DNA of 64,000 bases from Liolophura sinensis (lineage: Eukaryota; Mollusca; Polyplacophora; Chitonida; Chitonidae). A program made the position numbers and the translations under genes. The DNA lies in contig NC_088300.1 in assembly GCF_032854445.1 (NCBI RefSeq), forward strand, positions 81,445,084 to 81,509,083, written 5' to 3'. Of the stretch, positions 33,001 through 62,049 are shown in pieces (positions within the stretch are counted from its first letter, which is position 1; every line of letters starts with the position of its first letter). The notes under the pieces are model-generated. The model did not search any database. It was not told the DNA's origin and worked only from the letters and a program-made list of their open reading frames with translations.

Positions 33001-36000
33001 ATGTGTCAGTCCTTGCTGTCTGTCTGCTCTCCTCATCTGTGTTTGTCTGTGTGTGTGTTTTATGATAATGTTACATTTAACTCATGTGTAAGTACTTACT
33101 GTCTGTCTGCTCTCCTCATCTGTGTTTGTCTGTGTGTGTGTTTTGTGATAATGTTACATTTAACTCATGTCAGTCCTTACTGTCTGTCTGCTCTCCTCAT
33201 CTGTGTTTGTCTGTGTGTGTGTTTTGTGATAATGTTACATTTAACTCATGTGTCAGTCCTTACTGTCTGTCCGCTCTCCTCATCTGTGTTTGACTGTGTG
33301 TGTGTTTTGTGATAATGTTACATTTAACTCATGTGTAAGTACTTACTGTCTGTCTGCTCTCCTCATCTGTGTTTGTCTGTGTGTGTGTTTTATGATAATG
33401 TTACATTTAACTCATGTGTCAGTCCTTGCTGTCTGTCTGCTCTCCTCATCTGTGTTTGTCTGTGTGTGTGTTTTGTGATAATGTTACATTTAACTCATGT
33501 GTCAGCCCTTACTGTCTGTCTGCTCTCCTCATCTGTGTTTGTCTGTGTGTGTGTTTTGTGATAATGTTACATTTAACTCATGTGTCAGTCCTTGCTGTCT
33601 GTCTGCTCTCCTCATCTGTGTTTGTGTGTGTGTGTGTTTTGTGATAATGTTACATTTATCTCATGTGTCAGTCCTTACTGTCTGTCTGCTCTCCTCATCT
33701 GTGTTTGTCTGTGTGTGTGTTTTGTGATAATGTTACATTTAACTCATGTGTCAGTCCTTGCTGTCTGTCCGCTCTCCTCATGTGTGTTTGTCTGTGTGTG
33801 TGTTTTGTGATAATGTTACATTTAACTCATGTCAGTCCTTACTGTCTGCCTGCTCTCCTCATCTGTGTTTGTCTGTGTGTGTGTTTTGTGATAATGTTAC
33901 ATTTAACTCATGTGTCAGTCCTTACTGTCTGTCCGCTCTCCTCATCTGTGTTTATCTGTGTGTGTGTTTTGTGATAATGTTACATTTAACTCATGTGTCA
34001 GTCCTTACTGTCTGTCTGCTCTCCTCATCTGTGTTTGTCTGTGTGTGTGTTTTGTGGTAATGTTACATTTATCTCTTGTGTCAGTCCTTACTGTCTGTCT
34101 GCTCTCCTCATCTGTGTTTATCTGTGTGTGTGTTTTGTGATAATGTTACATTTAACTCATGTGTCAGTCCTTACTGTCTGTCTGCTCTCCTCATCTGTGT
34201 TTGTCTGTGTGTGTGTTTTGTGATAATGTTACATTTAACTCATGTGTCAGTCCTTACTGTCTGTCCGCTCTCCTCATCTGTGTTTGTCTGTGTGTGTGTT
34301 TTGTGGTAATGTTACATTTATCTCATGTGTCAGTCCTTGCTGTCTGTCCACTCTCCTCATCTGTGTTTGTCTGTGTGTGTGTTTTGTGATAATGTTACAT
34401 TTAACTCATTTCAGCCCTTACTGTCTGTCCGCTCTCCTCATCTGTGTTTGTCTGTGTGTGTGTTTTGTGATAATGTTACATTTAACTCATGTGTCAGTCC
34501 TTACTGTCTGTCTGCTCTCCTCATCTGTGTTTGTCTGTGTGTGTGTTTTGTGATAATGTTACATTTAACTCATGTCAGTCCTTACTGTCTGTCTGCTCTC
34601 CTCATCTGTGTTTGTCTGTGTGTGTGTTTTGTGATAATGTTACATTTAACTCATGTCAGTCCTTACTGTCTGTCTGCTCTCCTCATCTGTGTTTGTCTGT
34701 GTGTGTGTTTTGTGATAATGTTACATTTATCTCATGTGTCAGTCCTTACTGTCTGTCTGCTCTCCTCAACTGTGTTTGTCTGTGTGTGTGTTTTGTGATA
34801 ATGTTACATTTAACTCATGTGTCAGTACTTACTGTCTGTCTGCTCTCCTCATCTGTGTTTGTCTGTGTGTGTGTTTTGTGATAATGTTACATTTGACTCA
34901 TGTGTCAGTCCTTGCTTTCTGTCTGCTCTCCTCATCTGTGTTTGTCTGTGTGTGTGTTTTATGATAATGTTACATTTGACTCATGTGTAAGTACTTACTG
35001 TCTGTCTGCTCTCCTCATCTGTGTTTGTCTGTGTGTGTGTTTTGTGATAATGTTACATTTAACTCATGTCAGTCCTTACTGTCTGTCTGCTCTCCTCATC
35101 TGTGTTTGTCTGTGTGTGTGTTTTATGATAATGTTACATTTAACTCATGTGTCAGTACTTACTGTCTGTCTGCTCTCCTCATCTGTGTTTGTCTGTGTGT
35201 GTGTTTTATGATAATGTTACATTTAACTCATGTGTAAGTACTTACTGTCTGTCTGCTCTCCTCATCTGTGTTTGTCTGTGTGTGTGTTTTATGATAATGT
35301 TACATTTAACTCATGTCAGTCCTTACTGTCTGTCTGCTCTCCTCATCTGTGTTTGTCTGTGTGTGTGTTTTATGATAATGTTACATTTAACTCATGTGTC
35401 AGTACTTACTGTCTGTCCGCTCTCCTCATCTGTGTTTGTGTGTGTGTTTTGTGATAATGTTACATTTAACTCATGTGTCAGTCCTTGCTTTCTGTCTGCT
35501 CTCCTCATCTGTGTTTGTTTTGTGCTGTGCAGGAAGAAACAGCAGATGAGCCAGGATCATGAAGGAGAAATGGTGGAGGAAAAACTGCTGTTCCACGGCA
35601 CCAATGACGACGCAGTAGATGCCATATGCAAATCTGGTTTTGACTGGCGGCTATGTGGCAAGCATGGGACTATGTACGGCCAAGGTATAACCACCCGTCC
35701 GTGGCTCCCTGGCAGCATCACGGTGACTGCTCAACACCCGTCAGTAGCTCCCTGACAGCATCACTGTGACTGCTCAACAACCCTTAGTAGCTCCCTGACA
35801 ACATCACTGTGACTGCTCATTACCCCTGAGTAGCTTCCTGACAGCATCACTGTGACAGCTCATCACCCCTGAGTAACTCCCTGACAGCATCACTGTGACT
35901 GCTCATTACCCCTGAGTAACTCCCTGACAGCATCACTGTGACTGCTCATCACTCCTCAGTAGTTCCGTGACAGCATCACTGTGACAGCTCATCACCCCTC

Positions 36001-39000
36001 ACTAGCTCAGTAGCTCCCTGACAGCATCACTGTGACAGCTCATAACCCGTCAGTAGCTTCCTGACAGCATCACTGTGACTGCTCATCACCCCTCAGTAGC
36101 TCCCTGACAGCATCACTGTGACAGTTCATAACCCGTCAGTAGCTTCCTGACAGCATCACTGTGACAGCTCATCACCCCTGAGTAACTCCCTGACAGCATC
36201 ACTGTGACAGCTCATCACCCGTCAGTAGCTCCCTGACAACATCACTGTGACTGCTCATCACCCCTGAGTAGCTTCCTGGCAGCATCACTGTGACTGCTCA
36301 ACACTCGTCAGTAGCTCCCTGACAGCATCACTGTGACTGCTCATCATCTCTCAGTAGCTCCCTGAGGGCATCATTGTGACTGCTCAACACCCGTCAGTAG
36401 CTCCCTGACAGCATCACTGTGACAGCTCAACACCCATCAGTAGCTCCCTGAGAGCATTAGTGTGAGTGCTCAACACCCGTCGTTAGCTCCCTGACAGCAT
36501 CACTGTGACTGCTCAACACCCAGCAGTAGCCCCCTGACAGCATCACTGTGACTGCTCAACACCCGTCGTTAGCTCCCTGACAGCATGCCTGTGACTGCTC
36601 AACACTTGTCAGTAGCTCCTTGACAGCATCACTGTGACAGCTCATCACCCCTCAGTAGTTCCCTGACAACATCACCCCTGAGTAGCCCCCTGACAGCATC
36701 ACTGTGACAGCTCAATACCCCTCAGTAGCTCCAACAGCATCACTGTGACTGCTCAACACCCGTCAGTAGCTCCCTGACAGCATCTCTGTGACTGCTCAAC
36801 ACTTGTCAGTAGCTCCATGACAGCATCACTGTGAGTGGTCAACACCCCTGAGTAACTTCCTAACAGCATCACTGTGACTGCTCATCACCCCTGAGTAGCC
36901 CCCTGATAGCATCACTGTGACTGCTCATCACCCCTCAGTAGTTCTCGTGACAGCATCACTGTGACTGCTCATCATCTCTTAGTAGCTCCCTGACAGCATC
37001 ACTGTGACTGCTCAACACCCATCAGTAGCTCCCTGACAGCATCACTGTGACTGCTCAACACCCGTTAGTAGCTCCAACAGCATCACTGTGACTGCTCAAC
37101 ACCCATCAGTAGCTCCCTGACAGCATCACTGTGACTGCTCAACACCCGTCAGTAACTCCCTGACAGCATCACTGTGACTGCTCAACACTTGTCGGGAGCT
37201 CCCTGACAGCATCACTGTGAGTGGTCAACACCCCTAAGTAACTTCCTAACAGCATCACTGTGACTGCTCATCACCCCTGAGTAGCCCCCTGATAGCATCA
37301 CTGTGACTGCTCAACACCCATCAGTAGCTCCCTGACAGCATCACTGTGACTGCTCAACACCCATCAGTAGCTTCCTGACAGCATCACTGTGACTGCTCAA
37401 GACTTGTCAGTAGCTCCCTGACAGCATCATCCCTCAGTAATTCCCTGACAGCATCACTGTGACTGCTCAACACCCCTGAGTAACTCCCTGACAGCATCAC
37501 TGTGACTACTGTGACTGCTCATCACTCCTCAGTAGCTCCCTGACAGCATCACTGTGATTACACATCACCCCTGATTGGCTCCCTGCCAGGATCAGTGTAT
37601 GATTGCTTATCACCTCTTGGTAGCTCCCTGCCAGCATCAGTTTGTAACATAATTATGGCTGCTATTATAAATCTGCTGGTTTCTCTGTATGCTTCTGTTA
37701 TATTTTGTGACAGGCTTGTTTTAAAACACGATTTCTCTTGAAACTTTGAAGACATTTTTATTAAGCTTGTACCACATGAGCACCTACAGATAATCATACA
37801 GATCATCTGACAGAAGCACCCTATTTGTTTTCAGTGACCTTGATCTACTTTTTCAAGGTCATTAGGACTCTGCCTCTTTTACCTTGTAAACGTTGGCATC
37901 TGTAGAATGCTTGTGGCCATGTTTATTAAACTTCAGCCACATGTACACGTAGGCAATATGAATGGGCCTGTGTATCTGTTACCTTGTAAGCACACTACCT
38001 ACTGCGTGTAGGGCCGGGCAGTATTTTAGTGCATTTTTCACTGTAATTGTTTTTGTATTTCTTTGTGTGTACTTTGTTTTAGTCAGTCAGGTTTTCTTCT
38101 CTGTTTTAGGTTCGTACTTTGCCCAGACAGCATCTTACTCCCATCAGTACTCGGCTGCGGCAAAGGTTAACCGACGGGGCAGACATCCACTCACTGGCTT
38201 GTTGGGAGGGAAAGTCCGGGCCTGCAAGATCAAGATCCCCAAACTGCCCAAAAAGTCTTCTGCGAGCTCACCTCAGGCCATGCAGCTTAATAACTATACC
38301 TTTCTCTCCAGCTCAGCTGGTGTCAATCCAACCACCAGTGGTCCATACAGCTCTGGACTAGGAGGCTTAACCATGTCCTCTGTGGCAGGAGGCCAGTTTC
38401 CAGCCCCCTGTGTCCTGCCTCCATCCAGCCCTGTCAGCCACAGCATGAGCTCAGCCACTCACGGCTCGAGCATAGGTAGCCATGGTAGCAGTGTCTTCAC
38501 CTCTAGCTCCACAACCCCAGCTGGAACTGGGGGGCCTCAGACACTGAGCTGGCCACCCTCACAGCCTAACCCCCTTAACCTGTCCATGAGCAGCTATTCC
38601 ACACCCAGCTCTACTGCCCCACCAAATGTAGCCCTCTCTTCTCCTCTGGGAGCCCATTGCAGCTCAGCCCTAAGCTCCTTGTCAACCAATGCCAGTCTTA
38701 CAGTGCCTGGGATGACAGGATTCTACCTGCCTCACGCCTTCCTGGCTAATGTCGTCTCCAGTCAGGCAACGGCGGCAAACCTAGGATTTGGCAGTGCACC
38801 AGCCCTGGGGGGGACAGGGAGTAAGCAAGTGTCAAGCAGTGCACTTTTGACTGACAGCGACGCCCCTGTGTTTAAGATGTTCCTGGCGCGGGTACTGGTG
38901 GGCACTTACACTACTGGGAACAATGACCTTCGTAAACCTCCGCCATTGGACCCAGTCTCTGACCCATACGGCAGGTGCTTTGACAGCTGCGTTGACAATG

Positions 39001-39086
39001 TCATCTCACCTAAAATATTTGTTGTGTTTGATTCAGCTCAGGCATATCCGGAATACATCGTGCATTATAAAGAAAATGTTTCTTAG
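18030..39086 (+). CDS. RING-type zinc module plus PARP-family mono-ADP-ribosyltransferase, seven exons
   Basis: Exons 18030-18060, 20808-22018, 23500-23548, 25452-25690, 29419-29564, 35533-35684 and 38110-39086 sum to 2805 nt, i.e. 934 residues plus stop. All introns are GT-AG and all phases agree. Order of parts: residues 4-39 hold three hydrophobic/acidic SUMO-interaction-like stretches; 56-105 five decapeptide repeats; then Ser/Thr-rich linker; basic RKRLR at 346-350; Cys/His RING module at about 377-431 resembling RING1 of RNF216; PARP catalytic domain from about 511, with His580, Tyr612 and Ile912 at the triad positions; and a Ser/Pro-rich insert at about 626-865 inside that domain. The H-Y-I triad predicts transfer of single ADP-ribose units, as in PARP7, 10, 11 and 12. 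No WWE, macro or CCCH domain is seen, so no vertebrate symbol is assigned. Role in ADP-ribose/ubiquitin signalling is inferred. Confidence 0.85.
19141..19653. mobile_element. MITE-like element with about 80-bp terminal inverted repeats
   Basis: The left arm at 19141-19221 (CTCTTATTGAGCAATGCAAT, GAGAGTTACT, GACGGTAAGGAACATTTAC) matches the reverse complement of the right arm at 19577-19653 (CTCTTATCGAGCAAAGCAGT, GAGAGTTACT, GATGGTAAGGAACATTTAC). The interior of about 355 bp is non-coding. It looks like a non-autonomous foldback or DNA element in intron 1. No target-site duplication was established. Confidence 0.6.
20534..20682. mobile_element. Short hairpin element (MITE-like)
   Basis: The left arm AGCCAGATGTTTAAAAGTG and onward (20534-20580) is an imperfect reverse complement of the right arm (20633-20682), whose reverse complement reads AGCCCAGTTGTTCAAAAGTG and onward. 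The whole is about 150 bp with a loop of about 50 bp, and ends about 125 bp before exon 2. Confidence 0.55.
20808..22018 (+). CDS. RING-PARP gene exon 2
   Basis: The acceptor ATTTCAG|AGTCTG and donor GGGA|GTAAGT give 1211 bp ending in phase 0. It encodes residues 11-414: two more hydrophobic/acidic motifs (EVVVVCE near 15-21, DVVFLS at 34-39); five tandem ten-residue repeats of the SDVTPLTSDS type at 56-105; a long Ser/Thr/Pro-rich linker; basic RKRLR at 346-350; and the first half of the zinc module. The zinc candidates are C377-x2-C380, C389 or C390, H394, C397 or C398, and C400. The frame runs on past the donor into intron 2, but that tail has no family resemblance. Confidence 0.88.
22019..23499. 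other. Intron 2 of the RING-PARP gene
   Basis: About 22300-22480 holds three copies of a roughly 61-bp unit containing TCATCTGAAGGTGCTTGTAA. The remainder shows nothing recognisable. Confidence 0.7.
23500..23548 (+). CDS. RING-PARP gene exon 3 (49 bp)
   Basis: A tiny exon, acceptor TTTTCCAG|ACAACA and donor CCCATGA|GTGAGT, encodes TTLKCLSVGCESFYPM plus one base. It supplies C419-x4-C424, the last zinc pair. Together with exons 2 and 4 it gives LKC....C.SFYPMSELKHTLP, very close to the C-terminal half of the RNF216 RING1 domain. Confidence 0.82.
23825..25435. repeat. Minisatellite (30-36 bp unit) built from the exon 4 acceptor
   Basis: About 45-50 units. In the right two thirds the period is 30 bp (GATGACAGGTGAGCATTAGG); on the left it is about 36 bp, with TGGTTACAGGTGAGCA. 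The true exon 4 junction just downstream is TGGTTACAG|GTGAGCTG, so each unit carries a copy of the intron end plus the first exon bases. Histidine/threonine-rich minus-strand frames here are artefacts. Confidence 0.93.
25452..25690 (+). CDS. RING-PARP gene exon 4
   Basis: Begins GTGAGCTGAAG after TGGTTACAG and ends CAAACT|GTAAGT, phase 2 in and phase 0 out. It encodes residues 431-510: SELKHTLPGMVVDVLEIQLE completes the RNF216-like RING1 tail, followed by an acidic, Lys-rich linker (SQDDDDLKDSKSS). The reading frame continues into intron 4 only by chance. Confidence 0.83.
25780..28545. repeat. 39-bp minisatellite, about 70 copies
   Basis: The unit is 39 bp: GTTCACAGTGGTGGTACAGT then CATCTTTATTGTTATAGA. 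It starts about 90 bp after the exon 4 donor and fills most of intron 4. Many units differ only at a few positions (CAGTCATC/CAATCATC/CAATTATC). Confidence 0.95.
28546..29375. repeat. Second 39-bp minisatellite, diverged from the first
   Basis: About 21 copies built on TAGTCCTCTGTACCGTGATA and GTATTTTACACTCTTGG, the same 39-bp period as the neighbouring array. Position-by-position similarity (GTTATAG/GTGATAG, GGTACAGTC/GGTATAGTC) suggests common origin. The long Tyr/Lys/Ser frame on minus (28535-29299) exists because 39 is a multiple of 3. Confidence 0.92.
29419..29564 (+). CDS. RING-PARP gene exon 5 (start of catalytic domain)
   Basis: Acceptor CTTTCTTCCAG|CCTTTT, donor TCTGT|GTAAGT, 146 bp. 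It encodes residues 511-558, FLLVQLEPETEAYVSVSLKF through IEKIYRVQNPILWKFYS. The I..I.RVQNP.LW..Y block is the signature opening of the PARP catalytic domain in the PARP7/10-15 branch. Confidence 0.9.
29605..29906. mobile_element. Possible short TIR element
   Basis: AAAGGGCCGTACTTTGAC near the left end and AAGGTACGGCCCATTTT near the right end are imperfect reverse complements of about 14-15 bp enclosing about 270 bp of non-coding DNA. The repeats are too short to be sure. Confidence 0.25.
29949..30175 (+). mobile_element. Diverged tRNA-derived SINE with a duplicated tail block
   Basis: B box GTTCAAGTCC at 29961-29970, then a worn version of the body seen at 16.1 kb. The block GAAATACTCTTGAGTATGGC is followed by a second, altered copy (GAAATATTCTTCAGTACTGC) before the tail. 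It lies in intron 5. Confidence 0.75.
30281..35517. repeat. 83-bp minisatellite, about 63 copies, reaching exon 6
   Basis: The unit contains TCAGTCCTTACTGTCTGTCT, GCTCTCCTCATCTGTGTTTG and GATAATGTTACATTTAACTC. Some copies are shorter because GTGT is lost after CTCATG. The last partial copy ends about 15 bp before the exon 6 acceptor and supplies its pyrimidine tract. Overlapping Cys-rich frames of 70-213 residues are repeat artefacts. Confidence 0.96.
35533..35684 (+). CDS. RING-PARP gene exon 6 (catalytic histidine)
   Basis: Acceptor TGCTGTGCAG|GAAGAA, donor CCAAG|GTATAA, 152 bp. It encodes residues 559-609, VKKQQM..., EEKLLFHGT with His580, then GFDWRLCGKHGTMYGQ. These are the NAD-binding H-G-T and the G-x-x-G-T-x-Y-G motifs of PARPs. 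The donor is a weaker GTATAA. Confidence 0.92.
35693..37640. repeat. 43-bp minisatellite, about 45 copies, starting at the exon 6 donor
   Basis: The unit is 43 bp: CAGTAGCTCCCTGACAGCAT then CACTGTGACTGCTCA. The first copy begins within about 10 bp of the exon 6 donor. Copies vary by small indels. From 37641 to the exon 7 acceptor nothing is recognised. Confidence 0.95.
38110..39086 (+). CDS. RING-PARP gene exon 7 (catalytic core with insert, stop)
   Basis: Acceptor CTGTTTTAG|GTTCG; stop TAG at 39084-39086. It encodes GSYFAQTASYSHQYS with Tyr612, then about 240 residues of insert, then MFLARVLVGTYTTG (from 866), CFDSCVDN, PKIFVVFDSAQAYPEYIVHY and a short tail. The insert starts with basic KVNRRGRH and KIKIPKLPKK, a possible nuclear localisation signal, then continues as Ser/Thr/Pro/Gly-rich low-complexity sequence. 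Ile912 occupies the place of the polymerising glutamate of PARP1. The single open frame across the insert and both flanks shows that no intron is hiding there. Confidence 0.88.
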
Positions 39087-45475: not shown

Positions 45476-48400
45476 CTGAAAACAGTCAATGTTGGATCTT
45501 CACAAACATGTAGCAATGTGGACAACTAGGTGCTAACTTTCTGACATGGACAACAAATCACACCAAGCAGTGCACACTGTGCACAGAGACGTGTGCTTCG
45601 GGTTTTATTGGTGTCTTTGTGATAAGCCCATGTCCACATCACAGAAAATTTGCTATGATCTTACAAAGTGATTGAATGGATCATGTCTGCAGTGTAGTCA
45701 GTAACATATTATTAATCATACAATTTCAAACAAATTAAAACACTGCCATCATCCTGCTTTACAAAGATTACTTCACAAGGTGTATCACCAGGTGGCATAA
45801 GAGAGTTTTTTGTATATATCTTGTTTCCATGGATACCCTGCTGTACATGAAAACCACATTGTACTGAATATTATAGTTTTAAACATGAATCAAGAAAATA
45901 ATAAAACAAAGGCAACAACCAAATAGTAGACCGGAGCCTGTTGAAATTTCTACATTTCTGAGAGATAATCAAAGCTTCTCTTTAGATTCCTACCTTTCCT
46001 AACAGCCATATTGTTACTTTCTGGTGGAGGCTGAGAAAGAAGCTGACTGGCTCGCTTGGATTGAAAATATGAGTCCACTACATTGTCATTCACCTGTTCC
46101 AGTTTCTGAAAACATCAACAACATATCTACACATTATCAAATATATGTACAGGCCATCATTAAAATAACAATACAATAGCTAAATTTGTACTGTGATATA
46201 ACAATGACTTAAACTGACTTACCTGCCTCAATCTGTCTTCACTGTGAGTGCTCACAGGCATGCTTTGCTCTCCTAGGTACGTCCGAGATTTCGAGTCCAA
46301 ACGTCCACCCGGCATTACACCTGTAGCCATATTCACCACCATGTGTTAACGGTTCTTCTATAAAAGTTGGATACTGTCAGACTATAACATCTACCTTAGT
46401 TCTTCAACTGCCTGTGCAACCAATATTTTGAAACATTCTAAGAGAACTACTGGGTACAGAGAAATAGTTTTAGGAATTATTTTCATATTAATTGCATGCA
46501 TAAATTCAACAGAAAAAATGCTGGTTTAAGGTTGGAAATGTTGAAAATTTCCAACAGTCAAATATTTATTTGTCATCATGCTATCTCCACCACTATAGTC
46601 ACTTTTTGACTGTTTATAGAAAAAAACTCTCCTTGGACAGCTTAGGTTACATGTGAAGGTACCTACATTAGGCACAAATGTCTCCATATGACATACCTGC
46701 ATTAGGCAGAACTGTCTTCTCAATGGGCTGCCTAGGTAACATTTGACACTCCTGCATTAGACACAACTGTCTTCTGCATGGACAGTTTGGGTTACACATG
46801 ACATACCTGCATTAGGCAGAACCATCTTCTCAATGGACTGCCTAGGTAACATGTGACGCACCTGCATTAGGAACAACTGTCTTCTGCGTGGACAGTTTGG
46901 GTTACACATGACATACCTACATTAGGCAGAACTGCCTTCTCAATGGACTGCCTAGGTAACATGTGACGCACCTGCATTAGGAACAACTGTCTTCTGCGTG
47001 GACAGTTTGGGTTACACATGACATACCTGCATTAGGCAGAACCATCTTCTCAATGGACTGCCTAGGTAACATGTGACACACCTGCATTAGGAACAACTGT
47101 CTTCTGCGTGGACAGTTTGGGTTACACATGACATACCTGCATTAGGCAGAACTGTCTTCTCAATGGACTGCCTAGGTAACATGTGACACACCTGCATTAG
47201 ACACAACTGTCTTCTGCGTGGACAGTTTGGGTTACACATGACATACCTACATTTGGCAGAACCGTCTTCCAATGGACTGCCCTAGGTAACATTTGACACA
47301 CCTGCATTAGGAACATCTGTCTTCTCCTATGGACAGTTTGGGTTACACATGACATACCTGCATTAGGCAGAACTGTCTTCTCAATGGACTGCTTAGGTAA
47401 CATGTGACATACCTGCATTAGGAACAACTGTCTTCTCAATGGACTGCTTAGGTAACAGTGTGACACACCTGCATTAGGAACAACTGTCTTCTCCATGGAC
47501 AGTATGGGTTACACAAGACATACCTGCATTAGGCAGAACCATCTTCTCAATGGACTGCCTAGGTAACATGTGACACACCTGCATTAGGAACAACTGTCTT
47601 CTGCGTGGACAGTTTGGGTTATACATGACATACCTGCATTAGGCAGAACCATCTTCTCAATGGACTGCCTAGGGTAACATGTTGACACACCTGCATTAGG
47701 AACAACTGTCTTCTGCGTGGACAGTTTGGGTTACACAATGACATACCTGCATTAGCAGAACTGTCTTCTCAATGGACTGCCTAGGTAACATGTGATGCAC
47801 CTGCATTAGGCACAACTGTCTTCTGCGTGGACAGTTTGGGTTACACATGACATACCTGCATTGGCCAGAACTGTCTTCTCAATGGACTGCCTAGGTAACA
47901 CGTGACACACCTGCATTAGACACAACTGTCTTCTCCATGGACAGTTTGGGTTACACATGACATACCTACATTTGGGCAGAACCGTCTTCTCAATGGACTG
48001 CCTAGGTAACATTTGACACACCTGCATTAGGAACATCTGTCTTCTCCATGGACAGTTTGGGTTACACATGACATACCTGCATTAGGCAGAACTGTCTTCT
48101 CAATGGACTGCTTAGGTAACATGTGACACACCTGCATTAGGAACAACTGTCTTCTCCATGGACAGTTTGGGTTACACATGACATACCTACATTAGGCCGA
48201 ACTGTCTTCTCAATGGACTGCCTAGGTAACATGTGACACACCTGCATTAGGAACAACTGTCTTCTGCGTGGACAGTTTGGGTTACACATGACATACCTGC
48301 ATTAGGCAGAACCATCTTCTCAATGGACTGCTTAGGTAACATGTGACGCACCTGCATTAGACACAACTGTCTTCTCCATGGACAGTTTGGGTTACACATG

Positions 48401-51400
48401 ACATACCTGCATTAGGCAGAACTGTCTTCTCAATGGACTGCTTAGGTAACATGTGACACACCTGCATTAGACACAACTGTCTTCTCCATGGACAGTTTGG
48501 GTTACACATGACATACCTGCATTAGGCAGAACTGTCTTCTCAATGGACCTGCTTAGGTAACATGTGACACACCTGCATTAGACACAACTGTCTTCTCCAT
48601 GGACAGTTTGGGTTACACATGACATACCTGCATTTGGCAGAACCATCTTCTCAATGGACTGCCTAGGTAACATGTGACACACCTGCATTAGACACAACTG
48701 TCTTCTCCATGGGACAATTGGGTTACACATGACATACCTACATTAGGCAGAACTGTCTTCTCAATGGACTGCTTAGGTAACATGTGACACACCTGCATTA
48801 GGAACAACTGTCTTCTCCATGGACAGTTTGGGTTACACATGACATACCTGCATTAGGCAGAACTGTCTTCTCAATGGACTGCCTAGGTAACATGTGACAC
48901 ACCTGCATTAGGAACAACTGTCTTCTCCATGGACAGTTTGGGTTACACATGACATACCTGCATTAGGCAGAACTGTCTTCTCAATGGACTGCTTAGGTAA
49001 CATGTGACACACCTGCATTAGACACAACTGTCTTCTCCATGGACAGTTTGGGTTACACATGACATACCTGCATTAGGCAGAACTGTCTTCTCAATGGACT
49101 GCTTAGGTAACATGTGACACACCTGCATTAGGAACAACTGTCTTCTCCATGGACAGTTTGGGTTACACATGACATACCTGCATTTGGCAGAACCATCTTC
49201 TCAATGGACTGCCTAGGTAACATGTGACACACCTGCATTAGGAACATCTGTCTTCTGCGTGGACAGTTTGGGTTACACATGACATACCTACATTAGGCAG
49301 AACTGTCTTCTCAATGGACTGCCCTAGGTAACATGTGACGCACCTGCATTAGGCACAACTGTCTTCTGCGTGGACAGTTTGGGTTACACATGACATACCT
49401 GCATTAGGCAGAACCATCTTCTCAATGGACTGCCTAGGTAACATGTGACACACCTGCATTAGGAACAACTGTCTTCTGCGTGGACAGTTTGGGTTACACA
49501 TGACATACCTGCATTAGGCAGAACTGTCTTCTCAATGGACTGCCTAGGTAACATGTGATGCACCTGCATTAGGCAGAACTGTCTTCTGCGTGGACAGTTT
49601 GGGTTACACATGACATACCTGCATTGGCCAGAACTGTCTTCTCAATGGACTGCCTAGGTAACACGTGACACACCTGCATTAGGAACAACTGTCTTCTCCA
49701 TGGACAGTTTGGGTTACACATGACATACCTGCATTAGGCAGGACCGTCTTCTCCATGGACAGTTTGGGTAAAATCCAGCATTCATTGTCCTCATCCCATT
49801 TGGCCTCAGCCTTGATCTTGTCCAGGTTGATGTAGTTACAGTCACGCCTGACACATGGGTGGAGGCGCTCTACCAGGGACATGTACAATTTCAACTGCTT
49901 TTCCTGTTTCCGTATTGTGTCCAGGTAATCTGTTCTCTCTGTCTCAAACTCTGACTGAATATCTTTAATATCCTCCTTCAAACCCAGTATCTGCAAGAAC
50001 ACAAAAAAAAAGAAGACTGGCATATTAAAGAAGCATACACAAGGACTACCCAAATATAACACGCATAATATGGCATGTATGTGTTGATACAATCATCACA
50101 GCTTCTGACATATGTTTTAGTTAACCCACACCTGTGCAACAGGTATAATGTTGGGTGTTGATACAGTCATTACAGCTTCTGACGTGTTTTAGTTAACCCA
50201 ACTCTGTACAACAAGCATATTGTTAGGTGCTGATACAGTCATTACAGCTTAAGACGTGTTTAGCTGCCAATACAGGTGTTTTAGCTTCCAACACAGGTGT
50301 TTTAGCCGTCAACACAGGTGTTTTAGCCGCCAACACAGTTGTTTCAGCTGCCAATACAGGTGTTTTAGCCGTCAATACAGGTGTTTTAGCCGCCAATACA
50401 AGTCTTTTAGCTGCCATTACAGGTGTTTCAGTTGACAATACAGGTGTTTTAGCCAATACAGGCATTTCAGCTGCCAACACAGGTGTTTTAGCTGCCAATA
50501 CATGCATTTGAGCTGCCAACACAGGTATTTTAGTCGCCAACGCAGATGCTTCAGCTGCCAAAAACAGGTGTATTAGCTGCCAATACATGCATTTGAGCTG
50601 CCAATACAGGTGTTTTAGCCACCAACGCAGATGCTTCAGCTGCCAAAAACAGGTGTATTAGCTGCCAATACATGCATTTGAGCTGCCAATACAGGTGTTT
50701 TAGCTGCCAATGCAGATGCTTCAGCTGCCAATACAGGTGTTTTAACCGCCAATACAGGTGTTTTAGCTGCCAATACAGGTGTTTCAGCCGCCAATACAGG
50801 TGTTTTAGCCGCCAATACAGATGCTTCAGCTGGCAATACAGGTGTTTTAACCACCAATACAGGTGTTTTAGCTGCCAATACAGGTGTTTCAGCTGCCAAT
50901 ACAGGTGTTTGAGCAGTTGATGCATGTATTTTCCTCCTTGTTCCACAAATTTACCCCTTGAACTATACATTTCTTCGAGAAAGTAGTAGGAGAAATACTG
51001 GTATGAGTTTGCTCATGACTGAAGAGAGCTGTATTTACCACTTGGTGTGCTTTGTCCACTTCCTCAGATTTAGCGTAGACTTCATCCTGGATGTCACCAT
51101 AAATCCTGATCATTATCTGGTCATCATCCATCTGATTTATGGCATCTGTTATACAAAGACAATCATCAGATTTGTGAACACTGCACAATCCCACAGATCT
51201 ATTGATCAAATTTTGATCATCATCCATCTGACTTATGGTATCTGTTAGACATACATGAACACCTGTGAATTACACAAAATCTCACTGATCAAGGTTTGGC
51301 CATCAACCATTTAGTTTCTTGCATCCGTTCTCGAAAGATAAAAACCTTCATAAACAATACATAACTGTTAACAGATAGGCCACTTATTCATATACATTTT

Positions 51401-54400: not shown

Positions 54401-57400
54401 TGCTGGACAGGTGGATGGCCCTCTGTGCTGTGTTACCAGTCTGTGAAGCAGGAGGTGGATGGCCGGGCAACTCATCACGAATATCAGTTGAGGTCTGTAA
54501 AACAGAGGAAAATTTCACCTATACATCAGCTTCCTCAGTCAGACTTCTACTACAGGCTACAAGGCTATATACATGTACACATCAGCATTTCCATCTTGTC
54601 ATAGTACTCTACACTCCGGGTGTTTACAGGTTATGCTGATAAAGCAATGCTAGTACAGTTTACTAAACATCCTGTTAGAAAGTCAAAAAAGACAATTCTT
54701 GTGAAGTTCAGGCTGAAAAGAAAAAGGAAAACATTTAACACTTAACATTTCTGAGATAGTATCACTGAGTAGGTAAGTTAATCCAGGCATAAGCAGGTCC
54801 CTCTGACACTTCCTATGCTCTTGGGGGCCTTTGGGGGCCTTTGTAGTCTAGTACAGCACAATGACACAGGAGCCTCTCATTTATTGATTGCTGTGAGCTC
54901 AAGACCAGCGGATGGTCATGGGTTTATCCTGGTTCTATCCTGTTTCCTCCCAACATAATGCTGGCAGCTGTTGTATTTAAACGTGAAAACGTGAGCTTAT
55001 ATAGCTTATATATATGATGTATAAAAAATTAGTTTGACTCACCACACTTGTGACCTCCAGGGCGTGACCACCATCTAATGGGTGTCCATTGATACCTGTA
55101 AACCAGAGGGGATGAAGTCTGATTCAGAGCTGGATTTCAGATGTAGAGATCAAATCTTGGTGTGATCAACTGTTTAGATCCGACAACCATTACAAATCAA
55201 GTATGATGAGACACACAGGTGCAATGGCCTCCTCCTCCCCTTAGGCTCTCAGACTTCCCATCCCACCCACACCGGGCTATAACTCCCATCTGGTTGAAGT
55301 GGTCTTCCCCTCATCTGAGGCTCTCAGTCTTTTCACTCCACCCACCTGAGGGACATGGTGCTATAACTTACCTGGACCACTTGGTCTAGGCAAGTCATCT
55401 AGAGAAGACAAAGGCTCCCATCTGGTTGCAGTACACTGCCTTTCCCTTCTCCTGAGGCTCTCAGTTTTACACCCCATCCACCTGAGGGACATGCTGATGA
55501 AACTTACCTGGACCACTTGGTCTCTGCAGGTCGTCTAAAATGTAGGCTAATATCTGGGTGCAGTGCCCTGCCCTTTTTCTCCCCTGAGGCTCTCAGTCTT
55601 CCAACCCCATCCACCTGATGGACATGCTGATGAAACTTACCTGGACCACTTGGTCTCTGCAGGTCGTCTAAAATGTAGGCTCGCATCTGGGTGCAGTGCC
55701 CTGCCCTTTATCTCCCCTGAGGCTCTCAGTCTTCCAACCCCAGTCACCTGAGGGACATGCTGATGAAACTTACCTGGACCACTTGGTCTCTGTAGGTCAT
55801 CTAGAGATGTAGGCTCGCATCTGGGTGCAGTGCCCTGCCCTTTTTCTCCCCTGAGGCTCTCAGTCTTCCCACTCCACTCACCAGAGAGACATGCTGATGA
55901 AACTTACCTGGACCACTTGGTCTCTGTAGGTCGTCTAGAGATGTAGGCTCCCATCTGGGTGCAGTACCCTCCTCCTCCCTTGAGGTTCGCAGTCTACCCA
56001 CCCCACCTGCCTGAGGGACATGGGCGTCCTTGTTAACCTTCTTGTGTTTGCTCTCAGGTTTGCCTGTGTAACACAATGAGGAAAGGTCAGTCAGTTTATC
56101 TTAGTCACTAGGGTATATAAATACTCTGCAGCAAACAAGCCATTATACGTATCTTCTCAATAATTACACACTTGCTAATTGAGACACACTGGAAGCAGAT
56201 CAATCAAATCCTCTGCAAAGTGCTCACAGTGGGTGATATTGACATGCCAGCTGCCAAGCTGGTGTATACACCTATCCTGGCCTATAAAGCCAGGCTTTCC
56301 TGACAGCTTGTACACAGCAAATCACGATGTCACTTCTCAGCATACACACCTGTTTAAAAAAAAATAAAAGACAAAAACACTGATACCGGAACATCAATAT
56401 AGAGAAGGTATCTCTTTGCCATTTCCCTACCCAAAACTCCCTCCATGCCACTTTCCCCCACAGTGTTTTACAAACTATGCCATCCAATATTTAAAGTTTA
56501 ATATATTTACAGGGGAACATTCAACACCTTACTGCATTAGGTACATTATCTGCAGGACTGTCTTGAATCTACTGATCCCTTGTCTTCCTCCCTACTCGTG
56601 TATGGGGCCCACATAAGTATAGAACATGGATGATTGCCGTTTGATCATTGAACTAACAATGCTGCCTTACAAATGTGGATAAAACACCTGAAAAACGTGT
56701 GTCCGACTTGTAGGTAGGCTTCCCTTTGATCCCTGAATTAACAATGCTGCCACGTTTTTCAGATAAAGCACCTGAAAAACGTGTGTCTGACTTGTAGGTA
56801 GATGTCCCTACTACTGGTTACTGACTACGTGTCTACTTTGGCGGGAATATAACATAAATCTGACAGTTGAGTCTCGATGAGGAGGGGAGGGGGCTACACC
56901 CTCTTCAGATTAATTTCAGAAAGATACTTTGTAACATATTACCACAGGTACTTCAAGAAAAGTTAGTAGTGTATGTGCAGCCATGTATATATGTTATTAA
57001 ATTAGGTAAACTGGGCTTTTATTATGTACCAGATGACCTTGAGAGAATATCAATCTCTGTGCATATACATGTTGTTATGAAAGGCATTGCTAATTCCACA
57101 GAAAGAACATAAACCATGTTTGCTCAGAAAACAAAGTTCAAGTTGTTAGATCCAACTAAAAAGATGAAAGACCTGATAGCCCAGTTCAGCTGGAGAATAC
57201 AAACCATGTAGATTTCATCTGCCACCTGCAGGTTTGCGATATGGGAGGCTCTGGAAAGTCATTTCCAGACACAAGATCACACATATATGTTCAGTGTCCT
57301 AATAAATGTCTAAAGTAAAGGGAAGAATTGTCAAATTCTCATGTGTATTTATCTATTAATCACTCTAAAGGTATGCTCAAAAGTTAGCAATGGTATGACA

Positions 57401-60400: not shown

Positions 60401-61846
60401 GGCTACATTGTTAGTAATGGTAGAAAGTCCTCAAGCATACCAGGCTAAGCATAGCTGTGTCAGTAATCTGTACAAGGAGACCTATTCCCAGCCTACAGGC
60501 ACATGTATCCTATACCTCAGAAATAAGCCCCAAGACTGCGAACTTGTATATCAGACACGGTTTTAGCATCCATGTTACAGTAGATTACAGCTATTCTTTA
60601 ATACCACTACCTAGAGCAGCCCCTTACAAGCAAAAGTTAACAGTAGTTCTATAGGGTATACAACCAGTTTGGCATCACAGCTCCATATAACACAGTGATG
60701 CAAATAGGCCTTGTTCACCTGTCTAATCCTCTCCTTCTCAGCCTCCAGTTCTTCTCTGGTGCTGCCCTCCTCCACCAGGGACTCTCTGCTCCGTTCCTCA
60801 ATGCTGCCACCAAATCGTCCCTCATCTATCACAGTGCTGATGCCATCTGCAACACGGAAATATCAGAACAATCTTCAACACTGAAAACACACAGACATCG
60901 GAACAATTTTTCAACTGAACAACACCCAGATGTCAGAACAATCTTCAACATTGAACAACACACAAATGAAGGCCATACATGTTATAATTCCAAACTTCAG
61001 GTATCATTCCACCCACCATACATGTATCTCTTAGAGGATACATGTATGGTAACATGTTGGAGTTTGATAAGTGAAGTGCAAGGTCTGCTGTAACATTCCC
61101 TGTAACTGGCCCTGCCATTAGCTGCCCAGTCAGCATGGCCTTCAGGTGTCCTCTCTTAGAGGATACATATATGGTAACATGTTGGAGTTTGATGAGTGAA
61201 GGGCAAGGTCTGCTGTAACATTCCCTGTAACTGGCCCTGCCATTAGCTGCCCAGTCAGCATGGCCTTCAGGTGTCCTCTCTTAGAGGATACATGTATGGT
61301 AGCATGTTGGAGTTTGATAAGTGAAGGGCAAGGTCTGCTGTAACATTCCCTGTAACTGCCCCTGCTATGAGCCGCCCAGTCAGCATGGCCTTCATGTTTC
61401 GCCGCTAAGAGGATACATGTATAGCAGCATGTTGGAGTTTGATAAGTGAAGGGCAAGGTCAGCTGTAACGTTACCTGTAACTGGCCCTGCCATTAGCTGC
61501 CCAGTCAGCATGGCCTTCAGTCGCTGGATTTCCTCCTGGTACTCCCTCAATAAAGCATCTTTGGGATCTTCATTAATCTTGGGTTTGTTTTTGATGTTCT
61601 TGGCTCTGTTGGCATATCTGAGAGTGCTGAGTGTCTCGTCATAGTTGTTGTCAGCAGGGGAGAGACAGGCCACCATCAAGGTTTTGGTGTTTCCCCCGAG
61701 TGAGTCTTGCAGCAGTCGTGTCAACTTGGAATCTCTGTATGGTATATGTTTAGACTTGCCATCCACCAGAGCAGAGATAACATTGCCCAAAGCTGAGAGA
61801 GACAAGTTGATCCTTGTGGCTTCCTTCAGCCTGTCCCCTGTCGCAC
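45183..61846 (-). CDS. KIF17: Kinesin-like protein KIF17 (kinesin-2, OSM-3 type), 3' part
   Basis: Nineteen exon segments on minus give 715 residues plus stop in one continuous phase-consistent frame. The motor start lies beyond the right edge. KIF17 is the homodimeric kinesin-2 that carries cargo to ciliary tips and along dendrites. Visible parts: end of the motor domain ([54 protein letters not shown]); the family-specific [20 protein letters not shown] neck; coiled-coil segments; a variable middle with five 27-nt microexons; the basic [18 protein letters not shown] stretch; [20 protein letters not shown] and [14 protein letters not shown] plus [24 protein letters not shown]; and a tail with RLESLN, a KKSKKKR nuclear/ciliary localisation-type signal and C-terminal EPI, comparable to the EPL end of mammalian KIF17 that binds a PDZ domain. 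At least three introns carry arrays derived from its own exon ends. Confidence 0.93.
45994..46105 (-). CDS. KIF17: KIF17 exon, 112 bp
   Basis: Acceptor GTTTTCAG|AAACTG, donor AGGAAAG|GTAGGA. It encodes [20 protein letters not shown] and [30 protein letters not shown] matches NYFRSKRASQILS of the mammalian tail. Confidence 0.92.
46223..46320 (-). CDS. KIF17: KIF17 exon, 98 bp
   Basis: Acceptor ATGGCTACAG|GTGTAATG (poor pyrimidine tract), donor AGGCAG|GTAAGT. Joined to the previous exon it reads [20 protein letters not shown], then [10 protein letters not shown], comparable to the EDRYRLMLSR stretch of mammalian KIF17. The acceptor is weak, notable because some 57 donor-like sites precede it. 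Confidence 0.82.
46618..49767 (-). repeat. 55-bp (110-bp dimer) array made of a KIF17 exon end plus donor site
   Basis: Reading minus, two alternating 55-bp monomers occur: one with GAGAAGACAGTTCTGCCTAA then TGCAG|GTATGTCATGTG, the other with GAGAAGACAGTTGTTCCTAA then TGCAG|GTGTGTCACATG. GACAGTTTGG recurs at 46781, 46891, 47001, 47111 and 47221, giving an exact 110-bp dimer. About 28-29 dimers fit the span. The exon at 49729-49990 ends with the first monomer. Confidence 0.95.
49729..49990 (-). CDS. KIF17: KIF17 exon, 262 bp, conserved tail region
   Basis: Acceptor GTGTTCTTGCAG|ATACTG, donor AATGCAG|GTATGT, phase 0 in and phase 1 out. It encodes [60 protein letters not shown] and [18 protein letters not shown], strongly KIF17-like. 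The last 38 nt are also the founder monomer of the array downstream. Confidence 0.93.
50240..50925. repeat. 21-bp minisatellite, about 32 copies
   Basis: The unit is CAATACAGGTGTTTTAGCTG plus C, with CCGCC/CTGCC variants. Because 21 is a multiple of 3, several frames stay open on both strands and read as seven-residue repeats such as LAAKTPV. It lies wholly in a KIF17 intron and is not taken as coding. The 250 bp before it has a shorter direct repeat around GATACAGTCATTACAGCTT. Confidence 0.93.
51039..51145 (-). CDS. KIF17: KIF17 exon, 107 bp
   Basis: Acceptor TTGTATAACAG|ATGCC, donor CCAAGTG|GTAAAT, phase 0 out. It encodes [20 protein letters not shown] and [15 protein letters not shown], matching the LLNVYDSIQEEVRAKSKLLEK region of the mammalian protein. 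Confidence 0.88.
51190..51260 (-). repeat. Partial duplicate of the next KIF17 exon's 5' end
   Basis: On minus, TAACAG|ATACCATAAGTC then CAGATGGATGATGATC repeats the acceptor and first about 30 nt of the exon at 51039-51145 (TAACAG|ATGCCATAAATC, CAGATGGATGATGACC). The copy then diverges and has no matching donor. Confidence 0.75.
51413..51528 (-). CDS. KIF17: KIF17 exon with basic cluster
   Basis: Acceptor ATGATGTAG|GTTACA, donor AGCCA|GTGAGT, 116 bp. It encodes [32 protein letters not shown], matching the QLLEQQVVGGEQ...KRRKRYADERRKQL region of mammalian KIF17. Confidence 0.9.
51860..51907 (-). CDS. KIF17: KIF17 exon, 48 bp
   Basis: Acceptor TTAACACCAG|TGCTAAC, donor GACAG|GTAAGT, phase 1 nt in and 2 nt out. 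It encodes [16 protein letters not shown], an amphipathic helix. Confidence 0.78.
51925..52680. repeat. 108-bp minisatellite, about 7 copies
   Basis: The unit contains AAATATTAGTGTGAGACAGA, CATGACAGCTTCTAGAACAA and GGAAGACTGGACATCCTA. AAATATTAGT recurs at 52031 and 52139. It starts within about 20 bp of the acceptor side of the 48-bp exon at 51860-51907, so it abuts a splice site as other arrays do. Confidence 0.93.
52681..54327. other. KIF17 intron part, nothing recognised
   Basis: Unique sequence between the 108-bp array and the exon at 54328. A 99-residue open frame at 53722-54021 on + has no family resemblance and lies inside this intron. Confidence 0.5.
54328..54494 (-). CDS. KIF17: KIF17 exon, 167 bp
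   Basis: Acceptor GTTTTACAG|ACCTCA, donor CTCAGGAG|GTATGC, phase 0 in and phase 2 out. It encodes [20 protein letters not shown] and [12 protein letters not shown], a polar linker leading into the conserved second coiled-coil region. Confidence 0.8.
54890..54990 (+). mobile_element. Heavily worn SINE fragment
   Basis: GAGCTCAAGACCAG (altered B box), CGGATGGTCATGGGTTTATC, TTTCCTCCCAACATAATGCT match the family body seen at 43.3 kb. The tail is lost. Confidence 0.55.
55043..55095 (-). CDS. KIF17: KIF17 exon, 53 bp
   Basis: Acceptor TGGTTTACAG|GTATC, donor AGTGTG|GTGAGT, phase 2 in and phase 0 out. It encodes [18 protein letters not shown]. Non-conserved middle region; support is from splice sites and phase. 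Confidence 0.72.
55372..55398 (-). CDS. KIF17: KIF17 27-nt microexon, copy 5 (most diverged)
   Basis: TTCTCTAG|27 nt|GTAAGTT; encodes DDLPRPSGP (Gln to Pro). As the copy nearest the next constant exon it may be the ancestral one. Confidence 0.65.
55508..55534 (-). CDS. KIF17: KIF17 27-nt microexon, copy 4
   Basis: ACATTTTAG|27 nt|GTAAGTT; the 27 nt are identical to copy 3, indicating a recent duplication. Confidence 0.65.
55641..55667 (-). CDS. KIF17: KIF17 27-nt microexon, copy 3
   Basis: ACATTTTAG|27 nt|[16 protein letters not shown], with CTG in place of CTA for leucine (silent). Confidence 0.65.
55774..55800 (-). CDS. KIF17: KIF17 27-nt microexon, copy 2
   Basis: CATCTCTAG|27 nt|GTAAGTT; same phase and same nine residues as copy 1, with GAT in place of GAC at the first codon. 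Confidence 0.65.
55908..55934 (-). CDS. KIF17: KIF17 27-nt microexon, copy 1
   Basis: CATCTCTAG|27 nt|GTAAGTT; enters and leaves in phase 1. Adds nine residues, DDLQRPSGP, per inclusion. Confidence 0.65.
56007..56063 (-). CDS. KIF17: KIF17 exon, 57 bp
   Basis: Acceptor GTTACACAG|GCAAACC, likely donor CAGGCAG|GTGGGG. It encodes [19 protein letters not shown]. The 3' boundary could shift by a few bases because the exon end (CATGTCCCTCAG) is itself a component of the repeat that follows. Confidence 0.6.
56064..59540. other. KIF17 intron, 3.5 kb, no array
   Basis: Mostly unique sequence. Around 56640-56800 there is a two-copy tandem duplication of about 100 bp containing CACCTGAAAAACGTGTGTC. 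No other gene, RNA or repeat family was recognised. Confidence 0.6.
59541..59582 (-). CDS. KIF17: KIF17 exon, 42 bp
   Basis: Acceptor TTTTGTTCAG|TTCTGG, donor CACTGC|GTGAGT, phases fit both neighbours. It encodes [14 protein letters not shown]. Conservation is weak here, so support comes mainly from splice sites and phase. Confidence 0.7.
60165..60324 (-). CDS. KIF17: KIF17 exon: coiled coil
   Basis: Acceptor CTTCATTAG|GAGTACG, donor GCTGAAG|GTATAC, 160 bp. It encodes [20 protein letters not shown] and [18 protein letters not shown], matching the EEYEERLARLKADY...YDVRLSTLE coiled coil of mammalian KIF17. Confidence 0.9.
60719..60846 (-). CDS. KIF17: KIF17 exon: coiled-coil start
   Basis: Acceptor GTGTTGCAG|ATGGCATC, donor AGACAG|GTGAAC, 128 bp, phase 0 out. 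It encodes [20 protein letters not shown] and [13 protein letters not shown], charged helix-forming sequence that continues in the next exon. Confidence 0.88.
61098..61474 (-). repeat. Three extra tandem copies of the exon end, donor sites disabled
   Basis: A 125-bp unit (copies marked by TGTAACTGGC at 61101, 61226, 61351 and, in the real exon, 61476) repeats the last 46 nt of the neck exon plus the first about 80 nt of the intron. In the three intronic copies the donor GTAACG reads GGAATG, so the GT is lost. The real exon keeps GT. Confidence 0.9.
61475..61846 (-). CDS. KIF17: KIF17 exon: end of motor domain and neck
   Basis: Acceptor TTTGTGAAG|GTGCGACAGG (phase 2), donor GTTACAG|GTAACG (phase 1). 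It encodes [20 protein letters not shown] through [37 protein letters not shown] and [20 protein letters not shown]. It contains helices alpha-4 to alpha-6, the microtubule-binding L12/alpha-5 and the neck linker. No usual pyrimidine tract is obvious at the acceptor, but the protein match fixes the junction. Confidence 0.93.
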
Positions 61847-62049
61847 CTTCACAAAGATAGTCACAAGTAATTTGCAGATAAATACATATATTTCCAATAG
61901 AGAGACATTCCTGTCTAAAAAGGAATGTTTTGGTTTCCAAACAGAATACAAATACCAGAACTTCGGTTCTGAGCCAAAAGGTCCTGAATATTCAATCTAA
62001 GATCAGCTATAAAACTGTGATTCTATATTTTATGGAGCAAATAGGATCG

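What the first reader, a model, noticed from the sequence alone, without database searches (positions are those of the whole stretch)
46618..49990. A KIF17 exon end and its 5' splice site amplified into a 3.1-kb array
Seen: the last 38 nt of the exon at 49729-49990 plus about 17 nt of intron equal the 55-bp monomer of the array that follows. Nearly every monomer keeps CAG|GTATGT or CAG|GTGTGT, so some 57 donor-like sites stand in a row, ahead of a weak acceptor at 46320. Using the second donor (exon end 49674) would add 55 nt and bring an in-frame stop at 49679-49681. Inference: the cell must select the first donor, or distal use triggers decay. Copy number could then tune KIF17 output, or the array could act as a U1 snRNP sponge or elongation buffer.
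Basis: partly seen in the sequence, partly recalled or inferred. Interest (0 to 1): 0.85.

Follow-up and report, generated by a model that had tools for sequence, protein, structure and literature searches.

The report
KIF17 exon-end repeat array ("mirage")
In a chiton, the end of one exon of the motor-protein gene KIF17, splice signal included, has been copied about 55 times in a row into the following intron; similar exon-edge repeat arrays turn up elsewhere in this genome and resemble the 'mirages' known from amphioxus, so the array is most likely a tolerated repeat that splicing ignores by using the first signal.

Summary
On the minus strand an exon (49990-49729) ends in CAG|GTATGT; its last 38 nt plus 17 nt of intron found a 55-bp minisatellite (110-bp dimers, 46685-49771): the real donor, 55 regular copies and one degenerate end copy. 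GT survives in 56 of 57 sites. Every later regular donor (55 of 55) leads to the same in-frame stop at 49681-49679. The gene is KIF17-like; the genome matches the published chiton Liolophura sinensis (first named L. japonica).

It is not alone: 7 of 90 kinesin, myosin and dynein exon loci (one of them KIF17's motor exon) carry junction-spanning arrays, against 2.4 expected by random placement (P about 0.01), and KIF17 has a further one at 55315-56022. These fit amphioxus 'mirages'.

Most likely: minisatellite birth at an exon edge, tolerated because the first donor wins, as in human reporters with two equal donors. The donor block is well conserved, but seven other blocks of the unit are equally so, and some mirages lost their decoy sites; copy-number tuning, U1 sponge and elongation buffer are unsupported. 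No RNA was available. New member of a known kind.

The parts
49729..49990 (-). KIF17-like tail exon ([10 protein letters not shown]...[10 protein letters not shown]), 262 nt; its last 38 nt found the array; real donor CAG|GTATGT after 49729
   Evidence: (55% identity over 84 aa to a recalled human KIF17 tail)
46685..49771 (-). donor mirage: 55-bp minisatellite in 110-bp A/B dimers; real donor plus 55 regular copies; one degenerate end copy follows at about 46663
49679..49681 (-). in-frame TAA met first by every transcript that uses a later regular donor (55 of 55)
46223..46320 (-). next KIF17-like exon, 98 nt, pyrimidine-poor acceptor CTACAG|GTG, donor CAG|GTAAGT
46034..46090 (-). KIF17-like exon part ([19 protein letters not shown])
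   Evidence: E 0.007 to recalled human KIF17
55315..56022 (-). second donor mirage in the same gene, 133-bp unit x5.3, CAG|GTAAGT in 5 of 5 sites found (real one included)
55908..56063 (-). exon that founds the second mirage: 156 nt, phase 1-1, open, pyrimidine-rich acceptor; inferred, no homologue known
61475..61862 (-). KIF17 motor exon; approximate 5' edge; donor CAG|GTAACG after 61475
   Evidence: 90% identity over 118 aa to recalled human KIF17; Pfam Kinesin E 3.3e-39
61027..61520 (-). third donor mirage in the same gene, 125-bp unit x4; copies read CAG|GGAATG, so the decoy donor is lost in 3 of 3
   Evidence: labelled 61473 there

Best explanation
This is a donor-side 'mirage'. A 55-bp stretch spanning the end of a KIF17 exon and its 5' splice site was tandemly duplicated, and the extra copies, now intronic, grew as a minisatellite by dimer-wise turnover (sequence shown; process inferred). 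Splicing most likely uses the exon-proximal first donor, because that donor alone bounds the real exon and because equal tandem donors are served first come, first served (inferred; shown in human reporters, not here). Occasional use of a later donor gives a message that stops after 16 added codons, which nonsense-mediated decay would be expected to remove (stop computed, decay inferred). The array is therefore best read as a nearly neutral passenger, one of several of its kind in a minisatellite-rich chiton genome.
For: Founder relation and 57 sites. All 55 later regular donors give the same premature stop. The same anatomy occurs in other genes: 7 of 90 surveyed exon loci, 5 donor-side (L001, L019, L048, L056, L082) and 2 acceptor-side (L006, L073); L001 is KIF17 itself. 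Random placement of 70 arrays in 245,021 bases predicts 2.42; P(7 or more)=0.009, P(6 or more)=0.032. Seven other five-base blocks of the unit are as conserved as the donor block (8 of 51 with itself). Across 10 arrays, conservation of the splice dinucleotide exceeds the rest of the anchor in 6 and is lower in 4, so no consistent constraint. The human reporter library PMC6783452 states that with two consensus donors the first is predominantly used; its native contexts had donor distances of 2-77 nt (passages read). Amphioxus mirages are reported not to disturb splicing (PMC3087553; PMC3902484; passages read).
Against: No RNA: first-donor use is not shown here. The human rule was measured for two donors, not 56. 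In older in vitro work on duplicated donors (recalled) the intron-proximal site could win, which would predict use of the last copy. The weak next acceptor (6 of 16 pyrimidines) could make this intron slow and leaky. Signs of constraint: in the focal array the donor columns rank above the rest (one-sided P=0.049), and in the array before 25452 (+ strand) the AG|GTGA core is the best conserved stretch; a purely neutral view predicts neither. The excess of junction arrays over random placement also hints at something beyond chance placement.
Confidence: 0.72

Rival explanations
1. Regulatory leak: a fraction of transcripts uses a later donor, gets the stop at 49681 and decays, so array length tunes KIF17 output.
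For: Every later regular donor gives the same stop; 22 of 55 copies match the real donor over nine bases and the donor columns rank above the rest (P=0.049); the human IFI6 (6-16) minisatellite is cited as providing multiple splice donors (Turri 1995; title seen in the reference lists, paper not held).
Against: Seven other blocks are equally conserved; the sister array at 61027-61520 lost its decoys (3 of 3); the first-come rule predicts little leak; no link between length and output was testable.
Confidence: 0.1
2. Local U1 platform: the donors bind U1 snRNP along the intron and suppress premature polyadenylation or pace elongation (telescripting-like, recalled concept); in the strong form a U1 sponge.
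For: Up to 57 donor-like sites; one AATAAA in the intron, at 46570, just past the array.
Against: One AATAAA in a 3,408-nt intron is unremarkable; no conservation of the sites beyond other blocks; a sponge from one gene is quantitatively implausible against cellular U1 (recalled).
Confidence: 0.05
3. Recursive-splicing ladder: every copy is AG|GT, so splicing from the exon to any copy rebuilds the same exon end and donor, and the intron can be removed in steps without scar.
For: All 55 regular copies keep AG before the junction and 54 of 55 keep GT; pyrimidine content of the AG halves (mean 7.6 of 16) is no worse than that of the used acceptor (6 of 16).
Against: The acceptor half is exon sequence without a pyrimidine tract; several other mirages lack AG|GT in their copies.
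Confidence: 0.05
4. Assembly artefact: the copy number, or the array itself, is produced or distorted by assembly.
For: Tandem arrays are hard to assemble; coverage was 14x.
Against: HiFi mean read length 8,347 bp can span a 3.1-kb array; copies differ by many point variants and small indels; other arrays of the same kind exist elsewhere in the assembly.
Confidence: 0.06

Closest known systems
Amphioxus 'mirages' (Adh3, globin BflGb6 and BflGb9, also PGBD5; Canestro 2002 as cited; PMC3087553, PMC3902484)
   Same: Minisatellite-like tandem duplication of an exon-intron boundary, donor or acceptor side, many but not all copies with AG/GT signals; reported not to disturb regular splicing (passages read)
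   Different: Mollusc instead of cephalochordate; 55 regular extra copies here against 6 and 3 units in the two BflGb6 haplotypes; several in one gene; length polymorphism and normal splicing not tested here
Human IFI6/6-16 minisatellite with multiple splice donors (Turri 1995)
   Same: A minisatellite supplying several 5' splice sites; known here only by its title in reference lists
   Different: Details of unit and of donor use are recalled only; here all later regular donors give a stop
Internal tandem repeats at exon-intron boundaries of human duplicated genes (PMC2812944)
   Same: Minisatellites at exon-intron boundaries that can change splicing (passages read)
   Different: There the variable repeats sit in genes within segmental duplications and mostly lengthen coding exons or make new introns
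Earthworm metallothionein gene repeats (PMC12783039)
   Same: Minisatellites in an intron and duplicated exon copies not seen in the transcript, in another lophotrochozoan (passages read)
   Different: The passages do not describe a repeat unit spanning an exon-intron boundary

Membership tests
mirage (boundary minisatellite) | repeat unit spans an exon-intron boundary | tested here: met
   38 nt exon + 17 nt intron per unit
mirage (boundary minisatellite) | tandem, minisatellite-sized units with internal homogenisation | tested here: met
   55/110 bp, 93% matches between dimers; unit identity 0.88 at lag 2
mirage (boundary minisatellite) | copies carry AG/GT splice signals in many but not all units | tested here: met
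   GT in 56 of 57 sites
mirage (boundary minisatellite) | does not interfere with normal mRNA splicing | not testable with these tools
   no RNA data; only frame consequences were computed
mirage (boundary minisatellite) | length instability between alleles or tissues | not testable with these tools
   one assembly only
KIF17 | kinesin motor domain in the same gene | tested here: met
   Pfam Kinesin E 3.3e-39 for 61494-61862; the best kinesin match of the genome search lies here (L001). That motor and tail belong to one gene is inferred from strand, order and phase
KIF17 | KIF17-specific tail | tested here: met
recursive splice site (ratchet point) | strong pyrimidine tract before AG|GT (definition recalled) | tested here: not met
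   mean 7.6, maximum 8 of 16 pyrimidines at the 55 array AG sites

The most novel reading that the evidence does not exclude
In chitons, exon edges are a preferred birthplace of minisatellites, and donor-side arrays are natural ladders of AG|GT sites on which pre-mRNA can be spliced stepwise and without scar; introns would then be grown and kept functional by repeating their own splice site.
Probability: 0.06. Interest if true: 0.8.

Novelty: new member of a known kind. Interest (0 to 1): 0.45.

Why it matters
It extends boundary minisatellites from amphioxus to a mollusc and suggests that they are common in this genome. Apart from the human cases listed, no report of such arrays outside cephalochordates showed up in the listings (searches listed 20 of 40 and 10 of 15 papers, and only open-licence papers are held). 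Tandem identical donors in living genes are natural experiments on how a spliceosome picks one of dozens of equal sites: exon-proximal choice predicts clean mRNA, intron-proximal choice predicts stop-containing mRNA. They are also possible raw material for intron and exon-edge evolution.

Tried and rejected
Selection for decoy donors: not established. Donor columns of the focal array rank above the rest (one-sided P=0.049) but 8 of 51 blocks, the donor block included, are as conserved, and over 10 arrays the direction is 6 against 4 (one of the 10, before 25452, shares only 6 exon bases). Structured RNA: no Rfam match in the window at the gathering threshold; three 140-nt array pieces fold with z -1.21, -0.46 and -0.94. 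Other copies of this array in the genome: none seen (lower bound).

Near-junction arrays dropped from the survey count (one search lists 20 arrays in 19 of 90 loci within 150 nt of a matched exon; 7 counted, 13 dropped): L030 (unit wholly intronic), L070 (2.2 copies inside an exon, by position), L002, L017, L040 and the donor-side array of L054 (start in the intron, read), L010, L045, L050 and L087 (read), the acceptor-side array of L054, L068 and L072 (by position only). Junctions further than 150 nt from the Pfam match were not looked at, so 7 is a lower bound for these loci.

Weak points of the count: the rule of at least 8 exon bases was set after seeing L056, which shares only about 8 exon bases and whose TRF array starts about 50 nt beyond the matched exon, the link being read by eye. 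Without it the count is 6 (P 0.032 in the same run). Exon edges in that test are Pfam match edges, an approximation. One search used arrays of period 15 or more (70), of 10 or more (83, overlapping loci counted twice). L001 belongs to the gene that started the inquiry.

Array 1806-2378 (donor-like GTCAG|GTATGTGG on the minus strand): I recognised no exon next to it by reading. The paper PMC8724738 gave nothing usable in the passages seen.

Full report
What is there. The minus strand of the window holds an exon at 49990-49729 with a pyrimidine-rich acceptor (14 of 16) and the donor CAG|GTATGT. From 49771 down to 46685 runs a minisatellite of 55-bp units arranged as 110-bp dimers. Its unit is the last 38 nt of the exon plus 17 nt of intron. 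There are 56 regular donor positions, the real one and 55 copies, and one degenerate copy at the far end, 57 in all, of which 56 keep GT. Of the 56 regular sites, 23 read CAGGTATGT and 20 CAGGTGTGT. Copies are 67-89% identical to the real exon end.

Which gene and organism. A motor exon at 61494-61847 is 90% identical over 118 aa, and 61494-61862 hits Pfam Kinesin at 3.3e-39. The genome behind the window has 609,464,459 bases in 632 contigs, with C1 96,433,062 and C9 37,343,639 bases long. Contig number, longest scaffold and N50 equal those of the chiton assembly published as Liolophura japonica (PMC11068029, passages read); its stated total, 609,495,693, is 31,234 bases larger, which I did not explain. 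The species was later corrected to L. sinensis (PMC12441733, whole text read).

Consequences for the message. Joining the exon through each of the 56 regular donors to the next exon at 46320, only the first keeps the frame open. All 55 later ones meet the same TAA at 49681. Further exons follow, so decay by the nonsense pathway is expected (inference).

Not alone. In the same gene, a 133-bp array at 55315-56022 repeats the end of an inferred exon (56063-55908, 156 nt, phase 1-1, open) with CAG|GTAAGT in 5 of 5 sites. A 125-bp array at 61027-61520 repeats the end of the motor exon, but its three copies read CAG|GGAATG. To see how general this is I cut 30 loci each for kinesin, myosin and dynein exons. 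Of 90 loci, 7 have an array whose unit spans a junction of the matched exon: donor side L001 (the KIF17 motor exon again), L019, L048, L056, L082; acceptor side L006, L073. L056 is the weakest case, with about 8 exon bases. Placing the 70 distinct arrays at random in the 245,021 bases gives 2.42 expected; 7 or more came up in 0.9% of simulations and 6 or more in 3.2%. So exon edges look mildly enriched, but the test is small and its threshold was set late.

Selection on the decoys? In the focal array the five donor columns average 0.97 conserved against 0.85 for the rest (one-sided rank test P=0.049), which speaks for some constraint; but 8 of 51 five-base blocks, the donor block included, reach that level. 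Over 10 arrays the splice dinucleotide is better conserved than the rest of the anchor in 6 and worse in 4; L056 has TT instead of GT in 9 of 18 sites and L073 has AT instead of AG in 15 of 22. In the acceptor-type array before the + strand exon at 25452 the AG|GTGA core is the most conserved stretch. Overall there is no consistent sign that decoys are kept for use.

How it most likely works. Minisatellites are abundant here: arrays cover 29,772 of 64,000 bases in my list for the window and 33,472 of 292,242 in the 90 loci, overlaps counted twice. When a founder unit happens to span an exon end, the extra copies fall into the intron. They are tolerated if the exon-proximal site wins. PMC6783452 (passages read) found in human reporters that with two consensus donors the first is predominantly used, and that no such preference holds for acceptors. 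That second result does not explain how acceptor-side arrays are tolerated. Amphioxus mirages are reported not to disturb splicing (PMC3087553; PMC3902484; passages read). Whether chitons follow the same rule is not shown.

Comparison with the known. Anatomy, size and splice-signal content fit the amphioxus mirage; normal splicing and length instability, its other reported features, could not be tested. I therefore file it as a new member of a known kind, in a new phylum as far as the listings I saw show.

Limits. No RNA, no reads, no second chiton genome. The KIF17 name rests on recalled human sequence plus the Pfam motor hit. The exon at 56063-55908 is inferred from frame and splice signals alone.

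Noticed in passing
23825-25452 (+): About 52 copies of a 30-32 bp unit with CAG|GTGAGC lead up to an exon starting at 25452 (TTACAG|GTGAGC): an acceptor-side array sharing only 6 exon bases, whose AG|GT core is its best conserved stretch. The exon frame has no Pfam match.
   Followed up: partly
L006:773-1529: Kinesin acceptor-side mirage, 64 bp x11.8; AG kept in 9 of 12 sites.
   Followed up: partly
L019:1605-3168: Kinesin donor-side mirage, 73 bp x21.6, running to the locus end; the commonest copy is GAG|GTACGA (8 of 21), the real site and three copies GAG|GTAAGA.
   Followed up: partly
L082:1657-1783: Dynein donor-side mirage with only 2.2 copies and CAG|GTAAGT in both: looks like a newborn mirage.
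   Followed up: partly
window 30265-35518: The largest array of the window, 83-bp units x63.8, 95% matches; I noticed no exon beside it but did not search for one.
   Followed up: no
37962-39083 (+): Open frame with the C-terminal end of a PARP catalytic domain (Pfam E 1.4e-07), apparently a separate gene on the other strand.
   Followed up: no
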